Source: a virus
Virus record (IMG/VR): IMGVR_UViG_3300028837_003289
Span: 1 to 23,872 of that record
DNA length: 23,872 bases
Strand: one strand, 5' to 3'
Numbering within the stretch: the stretch's first letter is position 1; the number at the start of each line of letters is the position of its first letter. Under the pieces are notes generated by a model. It did no database searches. It was not told the DNA's origin and worked only from the letters and a program-made list of their open reading frames with translations. Of the stretch, positions 1-18,099 are shown piece after piece. Position numbers and translations under genes: made by a program.

Positions 1-453
1 AGTAGCTAATTCTGTACTATCAGTAATATCAGCAGAATATATAGTTTCCACTTCGCCAAGTGTGTCTATTTCGGTTTTTAAGTAATAGAGTGATAAATCA
101 AGACCCAATTCGGCTTTTGTTTGCCAAGCCATTTCGCCGGCAATATAAGCAGCAATATCATCATCTACAGGATCATTACCAAATTTTAATCCGGCTTCGG
201 GAATCTGTATTGTGCCACCAGTAGTTAAATCTTTAGGATACGATCCGTCCATTTTACTGTGAAAAAGTAATGCGCCTAAATCATTAATAATCGTTCTTGA
301 TTCGTTAGTGTCCTCGAGTGCGTCACTTTTGTCTGAACTATTGACGAGATATCCTACTCCAGACTGCTGTGTGAAGGTGTAATCTATAGCGAAGCCACTA
401 ATGCTAAATATCAGTAAAAATATTACACTTAACAATAATCCTTTTTTAAACAT
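1..453 (-). CDS. Exported protein of unknown function, C-terminus cut off by window edge
   Basis: The frame is open from an ATG at 453 to the window edge, so 151 residues are visible and the C-terminus is missing. The start follows a good ribosome site (GAAAGGAAGG) and overlaps the end of the HNH gene by 8 bases. The N-terminus is a clear signal peptide: MFKK, a hydrophobic core of about 15 residues, then SGFA before the likely cleavage point. The mature part is acidic and soluble. A stretch near the visible end (DTLGEVETIYSADI) recalls the low-complexity linkers of phage tail fibres, but this is only an impression. It could be an exported protein changing the host surface, or an adhesin. I do not recognise a family. 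Confidence 0.7.
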   Translation of the reverse strand, partial: MFKKGLLLSVIFLLIFSISGFAIDYTFTQQSGVGYLVNSSDKSDALEDTNESRTIINDLGALLFHSKMDGSYPKDLTTGGTIQIPEAGLKFGNDPVDDDIAAYIAGEMAWQTKAELGLDLSLYYLKTEIDTLGEVETIYSADITDSTELAT

Positions 454-1189
454 TATAAATCGCCTTCCTTTCAATATTCTTATTACAATAATTATCTGTT
501 TTTTTATGACAATCTTCACATAAGGTTACACTATTATTTATATTCCATAACTCTTCACAATTTAAAGCTTCTTCTAAAGTAGTTATCTCATAATATTGAA
601 TTATAGAAGAAAAAGATTTAATATGGTGAGCATTTAACTTTTCACCAATTTGTCCACATCTTTGACAGGTAAAACTATCACGGGTAAAAACATCACTTCT
701 CCATTGACGATATTTAAGTCTGGTTCTGATTGATCGTATTAATGGAGTTACTCCGCCCTTCCAATTAGACGCATTTTTACCACTCATTTTTTCTAGTGTT
801 TCTTTTGAACGGGGGATTCCTTTATTCCAAGGGATATGTCCTTTATTAGCTTCATTTAAAGAACGTATCAATATATTAAATCTTTTCAAACATCTATATA
901 TGGTAGGTAAACTTACTCCATATAATTTTGCAATTTTTCCCATCGGTAATTTTTCTTCTATATATTTATTGTATAGCCATTTTTTATCTATATTATTCCA
1001 AATCATATTCCAAGCTATTTGCCCCAAATGTCTTTCACTATTAGAACGGATTGGGATATTATACTTTTTTAACTGTCTACTTATAGTAATTCCATTTTTT
1101 TTGCATATTTTCCCGATTTGTCCAGTTGACAATCCCTCATCCCAATATTTCTTTCTTAACCATTCCTTATTTTGATATTTTTTTATCAT
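446..1189 (-). CDS. HNH homing-type endonuclease with tandem helix-turn-helix repeats
   Basis: A 247-residue free-standing HNH endonuclease. The nuclease domain fills the C-terminal third: CQRC at 175-178, the HH pair at 188-189 followed by IKSF, the LWNINNSVTLC strand, and CEDCHKK at 224-230, so both metal-binding CxxC pairs and the catalytic histidine are present. A WNKGIPRS segment near 121-128 resembles NUMOD3-type DNA-binding motifs. The N-terminal half contains two copies of a helix-turn-helix module (about 7-52 and 68-113), each ending in an I-(P/L)-IRS-N-E pattern, probably for target recognition. Such genes are mobile and often sit between phage structural genes. This one lies between a stop-interrupted small gene and an exported protein and overlaps both ends of its neighbours, as expected for a compact insertion. 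Confidence 0.9.
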   Translation of the reverse strand: MIKKYQNKEWLRKKYWDEGLSTGQIGKICKKNGITISRQLKKYNIPIRSNSERHLGQIAWNMIWNNIDKKWLYNKYIEEKLPMGKIAKLYGVSLPTIYRCLKRFNILIRSLNEANKGHIPWNKGIPRSKETLEKMSGKNASNWKGGVTPLIRSIRTRLKYRQWRSDVFTRDSFTCQRCGQIGEKLNAHHIKSFSSIIQYYEITTLEEALNCEELWNINNSVTLCEDCHKKTDNYCNKNIERKAIYNV

Positions 1190-1360: not shown

Positions 1361-1426
1361 AAAATAAAAAAAGAGCCATCAAAGAAACGTTTAAGCTTCT
1401 AAAATGGCTCTCTAATTTGGAGCTCT
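1361..1426 (-). terminator. Structured terminator element, copy A
   Basis: Read on the minus strand, AGAGCTCCAAA is followed by an AGAGAGCCAT arm. This pairs with ATGGCTCT (1372-1379 with 1404-1411) around an inner stem (AGAAGC with GTTTCT). A run of eight T follows, so this is a good intrinsic terminator. It lies after the exported-protein gene ending at 1487 and before the small gene starting at 1340. A second copy at 17985-18057 shares the outer stem and also the upstream AGAGCTCCAAA, which lies outside the hairpin, so the element is more than a plain terminator. Confidence 0.75.
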
Positions 1427-2819: not shown

Positions 2820-3797
2820 TTATACTAAAACCCAACTACTTCCATTCCAACGTTTTAAATTTCCACCTACCATACAAATTTGCCCAATTGCATTATTTTC
2901 AGTAGGATCAGAAGCTAAATTAGGTAATTTTAATTGTCCTGTATTATATAAATAAAACGGCCTTCCGACACAACCAAGATCCATTCTATTACCAAAAGTA
3001 GAAAGTTCTACAGAACTTGTCGTTATACCCATAATTAAATAGGCAAGTCCTTCTTTATATAATCTTATTTTATTACTACCGCTGTCGTATAATCTCATCC
3101 AGCTGTCCTCGAATAAGATATCCTCATCCTCTCCGCCACCTACCCTGATCCTCGTTCCGTAGATCGTCCCGGCGTGAACCGTTCCTAAAACGGCTGAAAT
3201 TGCTTCTAAACTGTCAACGTTTATTTTACCGGCAGTAACCGCCCCTGCAGCTATTTTATCGGCAGTAACCGCATCCACTTTTATTTTTGCTGTTTCAATG
3301 GCGTCAGATGCTATCTTGATAGCGGTTATAGCACCGGCCAAGATTTTATCTGCGTTTACCGCCCCTGCTTTTATTTTATTGGTTTCGACGGCATTTGCAT
3401 TTATTTTAATAGCGGTTATTGCATTAGACGCAATTTTATCTGCAGTCACGTTCCCTGCTTTTATTTTTAGTGTCTCAATAGCGTTGGCCGCTATTTTTAT
3501 GGCAGTGATAGCATTGGATGCTATTTTATTGGCAGTTACGTTTCCCGCTTTTATCTTATTAGTTTCGATAGCGTCGGCCGCTATCTTGATGGCTGTTATT
3601 GCATTGGCCACAATCTTGCCGGCAGTAATCGAACCATCGGGGAGCATAAGTGTATTGTTATCTAAATCGAAATATACCAATCCGTTGGTGGATTCAATCT
3701 TCCCGGTCCGGATAAATTTACCATTTACGATCGTCTGGCCATAAGTTAGCGATATTCCTCTTACCCCGTCGACTACCGAATGTAATACCCCAATCAA
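2820..3797 (-). CDS. Tail fibre with decapeptide repeats (3' part of a frame-split tail gene)
   Basis: A virion tail-tip fibre or receptor-binding component. In the 325 residues from a TTG at 3797 there is an entry domain (GVRGISLTYGQTIVNGKFIR), then fourteen 10-residue repeats of ITAxKIxxxA type (residues 57-196), then a C-terminal head ending LKRWNGSSWVLV, a common phage fibre ending. The frame is open upstream to 3872 and reads as protein there (QIVVDETQRKFDDDETYYYF), but has no ATG or GTG and no ribosome site. The TTG also lacks one. Together with the overlap with the tail-associated gene, this suggests that the two frames were one gene of about 890 codons split by a -1 frame change. A naturally separate fibre started from TTG is the alternative. 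Confidence 0.8.
   Translation of the reverse strand: MIGVLHSVVDGVRGISLTYGQTIVNGKFIRTGKIESTNGLVYFDLDNNTLMLPDGSITAGKIVANAITAIKIAADAIETNKIKAGNVTANKIASNAITAIKIAANAIETLKIKAGNVTADKIASNAITAIKINANAVETNKIKAGAVNADKILAGAITAIKIASDAIETAKIKVDAVTADKIAAGAVTAGKINVDSLEAISAVLGTVHAGTIYGTRIRVGGGEDEDILFEDSWMRLYDSGSNKIRLYKEGLAYLIMGITTSSVELSTFGNRMDLGCVGRPFYLYNTGQLKLPNLASDPTENNAIGQICMVGGNLKRWNGSSWVLV
3210..3629 (-). repeat. Fourteen tandem 30-bp units encoding ITAxKIxxxA repeats
   Basis: Within the fibre gene 420 bases encode fourteen 10-residue units without a gap. A higher-order period of 90 bases is visible: a VTADKIASNA-like unit, an ITAIKIAANA-like unit, then an IETNKIKAGN-like unit. Such repeats form the thin triple-helical or beta-spiral shafts of phage fibres, and copy number can change by recombination. 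Confidence 0.9.
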
Positions 3798-13771: not shown

Positions 13772-14193
13772 AAGCCATATTCCTTTATCTTTGACTTTAG
13801 GAGTGCCTTCGCTGCCGGCACGCTCCCGGTAATTACATCATACCCCTTCGATTCTACGGCTGCAGCGTATTCCATTCCCGCTACACAAATCAAGACAAAA
13901 CCCTTTTTATCTTCTCTTAATATTTCATCCGCTACTTTTTTCGCCTGGGCCTTACCTTCTGCTTTTCCTTCTATATTTTCCTGAATAATATTCCCATCCC
14001 GGGCAATGATATATCCGATTGAACTCCTCAGATTTCCGGTCTGGTCTTTATATGTCCTTATGTTCCTGGCATCATTGACAAAATTTTCGCCTACCATGGC
14101 CAGGGTCCAAATGATCCTTTGCTCTATGCTGACCGTAAATCTGTTTATCCGTCTGTCTACGTCCCCTTGTCTAAATCCAGGAATCAAAGGCAT
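13768..14193 (-). CDS. HK97 gp10-like head-tail component
   Basis: 141 residues with the usual pattern of gp10-like minor structural proteins: helix WTLAMVGENFVNDARNI followed by TYKDQTGNLRSSIGY (47-61) and a C-terminal strand and helix, VCVAGMEYAAAVE-like, here VLICVAGMEYAAAVESKGYD and PAAKALLKSKIKEY. These proteins act at the neck or join of head and tail. The gene begins one base after its upstream neighbour ends and ends in an ATGA overlap with the next gene, so the connector genes are translationally coupled. Confidence 0.8.
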   Translation of the reverse strand: MPLIPGFRQGDVDRRINRFTVSIEQRIIWTLAMVGENFVNDARNIRTYKDQTGNLRSSIGYIIARDGNIIQENIEGKAEGKAQAKKVADEILREDKKGFVLICVAGMEYAAAVESKGYDVITGSVPAAKALLKSKIKEYGL

Positions 14194-17764: not shown

Positions 17765-17956
17765 TCATTCTTTTGAAACTATTTTTATAGCCGAATCTCT
17801 CAATGCTTCGGATATATCACCCTGCTTTTTTTTCATTGCCTTTTCTACTTCTGACATTAATTTCTTATTTTTCCTGATTTCTACAGCCTTAATTAAAGTA
17901 TCTACTGCGCTAGAGATTTCCCATTTTCTTTGTATCTCTTTTTCTGTTTCCGGCAT
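17765..17956 (-). CDS. Small helical protein, first gene after the promoter-leader
   Basis: 63 residues, MPETEKEIQRKWEISSAVDT then helices rich in K and E. The ATG at 17956 follows AGGAG; a longer frame with an MVLFFF start would begin inside the terminator hairpin T-run and is rejected. It is the first gene behind promoter and leader element B. From memory, short proteins beginning MPETEKEIQ-KWE occur before capsid genes in other environmental phages; their job is unknown. Confidence 0.65.
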   Translation of the reverse strand: MPETEKEIQRKWEISSAVDTLIKAVEIRKNKKLMSEVEKAMKKKQGDISEALRDSAIKIVSKE

Positions 17957-17984: not shown

Positions 17985-18057
17985 TGCCAAAAAAAAAAGA
18001 GAACCATCCGAAGAAGTTTTAAAAACTTCTTAAAATGGCTCTCTTGTTTGGAGCTCT
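17985..18057 (-). terminator. Structured leader/terminator element, copy B
   Basis: On the minus strand AGAGCTCCAAAC is followed by AGAGAGCCAT pairing with ATGGTTCTCT (10 pairs, one G-T), with an inner perfect 9-pair stem AAGAAGTTT/AAACTTCTT on a 3-base loop, then ten T. It starts about 15 bases behind the -10 of a promoter and 29 bases before the ribosome site of the next gene, so all transcripts from that promoter must cross it. This fits an attenuator, an antitermination site or a terminator that yields a short RNA of about 80 bases. Compared with copy A the inner stem differs in sequence but still pairs. Confidence 0.75.
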
Positions 18058-18071
18058 GTCTATTTTTTTCT

Positions 18072-18099
18072 ATTATAACACTTTTTTTGATTTTTGCAA
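18072..18099 (-). promoter_or_regulatory. Extended -10 sigma-70-type promoter for the structural operon
   Basis: TTGCAA (18099-18094), a 16-base spacer and TATAAT (18077-18072), preceded by TGT to make an extended -10 TGnTATAAT. It lies directly behind the stop of the small gene ending at 18102. Transcription would start near 18065 and run through element B into the head genes. No other promoter was recognised in the long head-tail stretch to its left. Confidence 0.7.

What the first reader, a model, noticed from the sequence alone, without database searches (positions are those of the whole stretch)
17985..18099. Promoter directly followed by a structured terminator that all operon transcripts must cross
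An extended -10 promoter (TTGCAA, 16 bases, TGTTATAAT) is followed within about 15 bases by AGAGCTCCAAA and a two-part hairpin with ten T, then by the first gene of the head module. A terminator in this position would stop most transcription unless a phage factor or the RNA itself allows read-through. This would act like phage cis-acting antitermination sites or attenuators. The upstream GCTC can also pair with GAGC in the 5' arm of the terminator, a short possible antiterminator of 4 pairs. This would be a switch for late gene expression. Alternatively it makes a separate small RNA of about 80 bases.
Basis: partly seen in the sequence, partly recalled or inferred. Interest (0 to 1): 0.72.

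Follow-up and report, generated by a model that had tools for sequence, protein, structure and literature searches.

The report
Zinc-ribbon-controlled antitermination switch for phage late genes
Just before its head genes, and again before a tail-end gene, this uncultured phage carries a strong transcription stop signal whose foot overlaps a tiny RNA hairpin matching the binding site of phage Mu's zinc-finger protein Com; the same hairpin-plus-stop unit stands before late operons of well over a hundred other viral contigs that often also encode a Com-like protein, so it looks like a widespread, previously unrecognised on/off switch for late phage genes.

Summary
On the minus strand a promoter (TTGCAA-16-TATAAT with TG) is followed by AGAGCTCCAAA and a strong hairpin with ten T. 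The same AGAGCTCC-hairpin-T unit recurs at 1426-1361. Scans of IMG/VR gave 206 such elements in 182 loci, mostly 10-45 nt before a gene, typically a late one (scaffold, portal, protease, terminase).

AGAG[NN]C(C) pairs with the 5' foot of the terminator and covaries: 23 of 23 dereplicated elements with a changed loop-closing base have the matching partner, and a pattern forcing an unpairable base gave 0 hits against 95.

The motif (GAGNNCC-N2-7-GAGNNCC, C-G closing pair) is the published SELEX consensus of Mu-like Com, an RNA-binding zinc finger; that consensus has N2-3, while both window copies have N6. Com-like genes occur in 21 of 28 element-bearing contigs against 2 of 28 random ones, including all 7 long relatives, upstream of the first of two or three elements.

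Best explanation: the Com-like protein holds the small hairpin, removes the terminator's foot and opens the late operons. No transcription or binding was measured. Interest 0.86.

The parts
18072..18099 (-). sigma-70-like extended -10 promoter, TTGCAA-16-TATAAT with TG before the -10; expected start near 18065
   Evidence: kept in several relatives at the homologous head locus and promoter enrichment over all elements
18050..18057 (-). upstream half of the P1 (antiterminator / Com-type) hairpin, AGAGCTCC
   Evidence: conserved in the element family; first GAGNNCC of the Com SELEX consensus (PMC6483171)
18037..18043 (-). downstream half of P1, GAGAGCC; at the same time the 5' foot of the terminator. 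P1 pairs 18054-18051 with 18041-18038; predicted cross-loop pair 18050-18043 with A18042 bulged
   Evidence: covariation; fold of the segment; second GAGNNCC of the SELEX consensus
17997..18045 (-). intrinsic terminator hairpin (13 bp foot, 9 bp upper stem)
   Evidence: -28.2 kcal/mol, z -5.2
17989..17998 (-). U tract, ten T
17765..17956 (-). first gene of the head operon (MPETEKE..., 63 aa), preceded by AGGAG; followed by two small genes, scaffold (17360-16605), 16581-15973 and major capsid (15926-14796)
   Evidence: homologues follow 15 of the elements
1419..1426 (-). second element, upstream half of P1 (AGAGCTCC)
1406..1412 (-). second element, downstream half of P1 / terminator foot (GAGAGCC)
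1361..1413 (-). second element, terminator hairpin and T tract; followed by AAGGAG and a short reading frame (MENLAKEID...)
   Evidence: homologous element and gene in G002, G003, G004

Best explanation
The unit is a protein-controlled transcription attenuator that keeps phage late operons off until a Com-like zinc-ribbon RNA-binding protein has been made. Host RNA polymerase starts at the promoter at 18099-18072 (or reads in from upstream genes, as seems the case at the second site) and within about 75 nt transcribes P1 and then the terminator. Without the protein the 13-bp terminator foot forms next to the U tract and transcription stops. With the protein, the small hairpin P1 (stem GCUC/GAGC, loop C...GA) is held. 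P1 uses the same bases as the U-proximal foot of the terminator, so only the upper stem can form, about 7-8 nt away from the U tract, and polymerase reads through into the head genes. Shown: the sequence elements, the mutual exclusion in the fold, covariation of P1, the match to the Com SELEX consensus, repetition before late operons, and co-occurrence with Com-like genes. Inferred: that the Com-like protein binds these hairpins, that binding lowers termination, and the early-to-late timing.
For: Unit structure in the window and a second copy. Element family: 95 IMG/VR stretches for the T form against 2 in 257 Gb of bacterial and archaeal genomes; at least 120 for variants; 206 elements in 182 loci, GC 0.32-0.68; 0 in 546 kb of random viral loci. 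P1 covariation: U7-a4 203/206 paired and, where a4 was left free, 23/23 after dereplication (0 of 10,000 permutations); U6-a5 110/122 against 54 expected; the unpairable pattern gave 0 hits. Holding P1 leaves a median of 7 extra unpaired nt between hairpin foot and U tract, in 185 elements. The SELEX consensus of Mu-like Com is NGAGNNCC(N)2-3GAGNNCCNN, with a hairpin closed by C-G and the GA protected by Com (PMC6483171); 72 of 206 elements match it exactly and the loop distribution peaks at N2-3, with a second peak at N6-7. Com-like genes: 21/28 element contigs against 2/28 random (p = 3e-7); with Pfam PF10122, 14/30 against 1/30 at E<=0.01 and 6/30 against 0/30 over cut-off. Present in 7/7 long relatives, same strand, 10-2627 nt before an element, with two or three elements per contig. 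Zn-ribbon ORF within 260 nt upstream of 37/206 elements, and close to the element in most of 10 further contigs. Downstream genes that could be identified are late genes. Promoters are enriched upstream.
Against: No RNA or binding data. The window itself lacks a Com-like gene; it is a fragment that begins downstream of where relatives carry it. Both window copies have a 6-nt spacer where SELEX favoured 2-3. 19 of 206 elements have a mismatch at U6-a5. 7 of 28 element contigs show no Com-like hit (fragments, or another factor). Com in Mu is known as a translational activator, so the proteins could act on translation here too. Without protein the terminator state is about 10 kcal/mol better, so strong stabilisation or kinetic trapping is needed. 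Most rows of profile A1 came from element contigs, so that enrichment is partly circular; the Pfam test is not.
Confidence: 0.74

Rival explanations
1. RNA-only or host-factor attenuator: P1 forms co-transcriptionally and competes with the terminator by kinetics, or a host protein (not Com) binds it; Com-like genes are neighbours for another reason.
For: P1 is transcribed before the terminator's 3' arm and folds on its own at about -4.5 kcal/mol; 7 of 28 element contigs have no recognisable Com-like gene; the element spans very different GC contents.
Against: The loop and flank identities (GAG..C C..GA) match the Com SELEX motif rather than just a stem; Com-like genes are enriched and often adjacent.
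Confidence: 0.12
2. Translational control as in Mu mom: the Com-like protein binds P1 and changes translation of the next gene; the terminator is just the end of the preceding unit.
For: Mu Com binds the same kind of hairpin and activates mom translation; hairpins of the same plan are found at the 3' end of com before DNA-modification genes in most of the cultured phages examined.
Against: Here the start codon and ribosome site lie mostly 10-45 nt beyond the T tract and outside the hairpin, and the conserved overlap is with the terminator foot.
Confidence: 0.07
3. Plain module-boundary terminator that stops upstream transcription, with a chance promoter in front; AGAGCTCC is a decorative repeat or a DNA operator.
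For: The element lies just after the 3' end of a same-strand gene; promoter-like matches are common in AT-rich DNA.
Against: Compensatory changes in P1, promoter enrichment well above shuffles, also in GC-rich contigs, and recurrence a short distance before late genes. A DNA operator is unlikely with spacers of 0-13 nt and an overlap with a terminator.
Confidence: 0.04
4. The promoter and terminator make a separate ~75-nt small RNA that acts in trans.
For: The distances fit a short RNA.
Against: The units stand repeatedly before different late genes on their strand; the hairpin loops differ between copies, and no stretch outside the P1/terminator parts is obviously kept.
Confidence: 0.03

Closest known systems
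Mu-type Com protein and its mom mRNA site (SELEX consensus NGAGNNCC(N)2-3GAGNNCCNN; PMC6483171)
   Same: Two GAGNNCC halves around a 3-4 bp stem closed by C-G, loop starting with C and ending with GA, often found close to a small CxxC...CPxC zinc-ribbon gene.
   Different: Here the second half is also the foot of an intrinsic terminator, the sites are repeated before late structural operons, and the predicted effect is on transcription. The window copies have six instead of two or three loop bases.
BglG/LicT-type RNA antiterminators (RAT hairpin overlapping a terminator), from general knowledge
   Same: A protein-stabilised small hairpin that shares bases with the terminator and so prevents it.
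   Different: The candidate protein is a zinc ribbon rather than a BglG/LicT protein, and the targets are phage late operons; the RAT consensus was not tested.
Lambda-type late control, PR'-tR' with Q (PMC6606751, abstract, for the Q mechanism)
   Same: A late promoter directly followed by a terminator that late transcripts must pass.
   Different: Q engages polymerase through a DNA site in the promoter; here a hairpin in the RNA overlaps one terminator, and each late operon has its own copy.
HK022 put RNA (PMC9378689, abstract)
   Same: A cis RNA element of a phage transcript that overcomes termination.
   Different: put RNA acts without a phage protein; in the present element the hairpin shares bases with the terminator and co-occurs with a phage protein. 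No Rfam family matched here.

Membership tests
Com-type RNA binding site (SELEX consensus) | Two GAGNNCC halves | tested here: met
   Both window copies GAGCTCC/GAGAGCC
Com-type RNA binding site (SELEX consensus) | Stem of 3-4 bp closed by C-G next to the loop | tested here: met
   GCUC/GAGC; loop-closing pair C-G in 172 of 206 elements, otherwise compensated in all but 3
Com-type RNA binding site (SELEX consensus) | Two or three bases between CC and GAG | tested here: not met
   Window copies have six; 72 of 206 elements of the family match exactly, second mode at six to seven
Com-type RNA binding site (SELEX consensus) | Bound by a Com protein | not testable with these tools
   needs EMSA or footprinting
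Com family (PF10122) regulator in the same phage | Zinc-ribbon gene over the Pfam cut-off | tested here: inconclusive
   None in the window fragment; 6 of 30 element contigs over cut-off, 14 of 30 at E<=0.01 against 1 of 30 random; divergent Com-like gene in 7 of 7 long relatives
Intrinsic terminator | Stable hairpin directly followed by a U tract | tested here: met
   -28.2 kcal/mol, z -5.2, ten T
Transcription attenuator with antiterminator | Two mutually exclusive helices sharing a strand, both conserved by covariation | tested here: met
   P1 and terminator foot share a4-a7; both covary
Transcription attenuator with antiterminator | Condition-dependent read-through | not testable with these tools
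   no RNA data
BglG/LicT RAT system | RAT consensus and BglG-type protein | not tested
   named from general knowledge only
Lambda Q late antitermination | Q-binding DNA element in the promoter and promoter-proximal pause | not tested
   no Q homologue looked for; the pause would need biochemistry
Any Rfam family | Score over the gathering threshold | tested here: not met

The most novel reading that the evidence does not exclude
Com-type zinc ribbons are a general class of phage antitermination proteins that open late operons one by one in many uncultured phages, and Mu's translational use of Com on mom is a special, possibly derived, case of an older transcriptional switch.
Probability: 0.4. 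Interest if true: 0.93.

Novelty: new variant of a known kind. Interest (0 to 1): 0.86.

Why it matters
How most uncultured phages time their late genes is unknown. If true, this gives one RNA signature and one small protein family that together predict late operons and their regulator directly from metagenomic contigs. It would add a new type of antiterminator (a zinc ribbon of some 35-60 aa acting on a hairpin), extend Com from a single DNA-modification gene to whole structural operons, and supply a compact protein-controlled terminator that is easy to test.

Tried and rejected
Rfam at gathering and at E<=1: only chance miRNA/sRNA matches far below cut-off.

Upstream AGAGCT pairing with the 3' arm of the terminator was considered: in the register tested, U6 pairs with the terminator's 3' base in 9 of 206, and the upstream half resembles the 3' arm rather than complementing it, so this was dropped.

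DNA operator reading: dropped because spacers vary 0-13 nt without helical phasing, and because the unit is fused to a terminator and lies on the gene's strand.

Pairing of CUCC with the downstream Shine-Dalgarno: possible in some elements, absent in others (by eye).

Host assignment: the two genome-contig hits look like chance matches by eye, one with a weak T tract, and were not used.

DNA searches for cultured relatives of three element regions found nothing. The major capsid has only distant cultured relatives, all below 60% identity.

A PDB search with the Com-like profile gave only general zinc ribbons.

Paper searches for a Com-dependent terminator found no report; only openly licensed papers are held.

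Full report
WHAT IS THERE. On the minus strand, from 18099 down, the window reads TTGCAA, 16 bases, TATAAT preceded by TG, then 14 bases, AGAGCTCC, AAACAA, GAGAGCC and a long hairpin that ends in ten T. The RNA folds at -28.2 kcal/mol, z = -5.2 against dinucleotide shuffles. A Shine-Dalgarno and the ATG of a 63-aa gene follow; this gene opens the head operon (two small genes, scaffold, a further gene, major capsid). A search of the window with its own element found a second complete unit at 1426-1361, same strand, 80% alike. GAGCTCC-N2-14-GAGAGCC is found twice and never in 100 shuffles. The simple terminator scan did not list the reported terminator, probably because of its length limits.

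A FAMILY OF ELEMENTS. A pattern of AGAGCTCC, 0-14 bases, AGAGRGCC, a loop and GGYYYTYTTT occurs in 95 stretches of IMG/VR, but in only 2 stretches of 257 Gb of bacterial and archaeal genomes. After requiring a stable hairpin, 206 elements in 182 loci remained, from contigs of 32-68% GC. A scan of all strong terminators in the related contigs also picked out AGAGCTCC-like sequence upstream: 82 exact and 8 one-off, against 0 and 2.4 in shuffles (part of those contigs had been fetched with that motif, so this is not fully independent). In 57 random viral loci (546 kb) there was none. The elements are intergenic; 174 of 206 lie between genes with a reading frame starting within about 160 nt of the T tract, mostly 10-45 nt. 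The genes that follow include scaffold, portal, head protease and terminase large subunit, and by eye an endolysin-like gene (L106) and tail-fibre-like genes.

THE SMALL HAIRPIN. Name the upstream half AGA-G4-N5-N6-N7-C and the terminator foot (N)GA-a4-a5-G-C-C. N7 pairs with a4 in 203 of 206 (C-G 172, U-A 15, A-U 11, U-G 4, G-U 1), and N6 with a5 in 187 of 206 (U-A 93, G-C 62, U-G 16, A-U 6, G-U 6, C-G 4). The first pattern had restricted a5 to A or G, so this was checked in three ways. Where a4 was left free and N7 was not C, 23 of 23 dereplicated elements pair (0 of 10,000 permutations). Where a5 was left free and N6 was not U, 57 of 69 pair against 45.8 expected (0 of 10,000). And a pattern asking for N6 = U with a5 = C or U, which cannot pair, gave no hit in IMG/VR, against 95 for A or G. 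The exceptions are mainly C-A and A-A at N6-a5, mostly in AT-rich contigs.

WHY IT EXCLUDES THE TERMINATOR. The bases a4-a7 are both the 3' strand of the small hairpin (P1) and the U-proximal foot of the terminator. When P1 is enforced, the foot opens by a median of 7 nt (IQR 7-8) in 185 elements, so the remaining upper stem no longer abuts the U tract. The terminator state is favoured by about 10 kcal/mol without a ligand, so a stabilising partner, or co-transcriptional trapping, is required.

THE CANDIDATE PARTNER. Nowacka et al. 2019 (PMC6483171) selected RNA with a Mu-like Com protein and obtained NGAGNNCC(N)2-3GAGNNCCNN: two halves around a 3-4 bp stem, an invariable C-G pair closing the loop, and the GA dinucleotide protected by Com. 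This is the present motif. 72 of 206 elements fit it exactly, and the spacer distribution, which the scans left free from 0 to 14, peaks at two to three, with a second peak at six to seven to which the window copies belong. In Mu itself the com/mom region shows AUGC-CUGCGA-GCAU, and most cultured phages with a com gene that were examined carry hairpins of the same plan at the end of com, usually before a DNA-modification gene.

CO-OCCURRENCE. Small zinc-ribbon frames lie within 260 nt upstream of 37 of 206 elements, often ending inside the element; four of nine tested exceed the PF10122 cut-off. With PF10122, 14 of 30 long element contigs match at E<=0.01 (6 over cut-off) against 1 of 30 random contigs (0 over cut-off). 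With a wider profile, 21 of 28 match against 2 of 28 (p = 3e-7); several of its rows come from these contigs, so this second figure is partly circular. All seven long relatives of the window that were read in full (36-53 kb) carry a Com-like gene of about 60 aa on the same strand, 10 to 2627 nt before an element. With two or three elements per contig, these stand before a ParB/terminase-type gene, the head (portal or scaffold) operon and a tail-side operon. In several further contigs the order com-element-gene was seen directly, while the one random contig with a clear Com-like gene had no element near it. The window has no such gene, as expected of a fragment that starts downstream of that position.

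PROMOTERS. Promoter-like sites with score >=11 lie within 100 nt upstream of 31 of 156 dereplicated elements, against 0.7 expected, also in GC-rich contigs. At the head locus the TTGCAA/TTGCCA...TATAAT promoter is kept in several relatives at two distances from the element. The second window copy has no convincing promoter by eye and probably gates read-in transcription.

MECHANISM. The best-supported reading is a per-operon antitermination switch: polymerase starts close to the element, P1 appears first, a Com-like protein made before the late phase holds it, the terminator foot cannot form, and late genes are transcribed. Anatomy, covariation, motif identity and co-occurrence are shown. Binding by the relatives' own Com-like proteins, the drop in termination and the timing are inferred.

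NOVELTY. The parts are known separately (Com and its RNA; protein-stabilised antiterminator hairpins; phage late promoters followed by terminators). Their combination as a repeated late-gene control element was not found in Rfam or in the openly licensed literature searched; subscription papers were not available.

Noticed in passing
window 1361-1290 (minus strand): The reading frame after the second element (MENLAKEIDKILTQFL) ends after 16 codons, while intact 56-57 aa homologues follow the same element in G002, G003 and G004.
   Followed up: partly
L042 8246-8330; L130 near 2566: The head-locus element is partly duplicated in tandem, with an inserted small hairpin (AGAACCCC...GGGTC) between the copies.
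   Followed up: no
L194 5469, L195 4653, L263 4856: Extra P1-like hairpins (AACGCC-n-GAGCGTC) lie inside the element loop, as if several protein sites were stacked before one terminator.
   Followed up: no
L189 from 2306 and homologues: The terminase large subunit following the element appears to contain an intein-like insertion (SDKTRILTTRGW...).
   Followed up: no
L334-L341, several Pseudomonas, Aeromonas and Escherichia phages: com-like genes, several of them unannotated, often sit directly before DNA methyltransferase or other modification genes and usually carry one or two Com-type hairpins at their 3' end.
   Followed up: partly
G046 (random contig), near 14015: A Com-like gene without a P1-terminator element within about 5 kb, so Com-like proteins also exist outside this arrangement.
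   Followed up: partly
window 3223-3557: Tandem 30/60-base repeats coding for a repetitive stretch of a 325-aa tail-side protein.
   Followed up: no
window 446-1189: Homing-endonuclease-like gene next to the second element.
   Followed up: no
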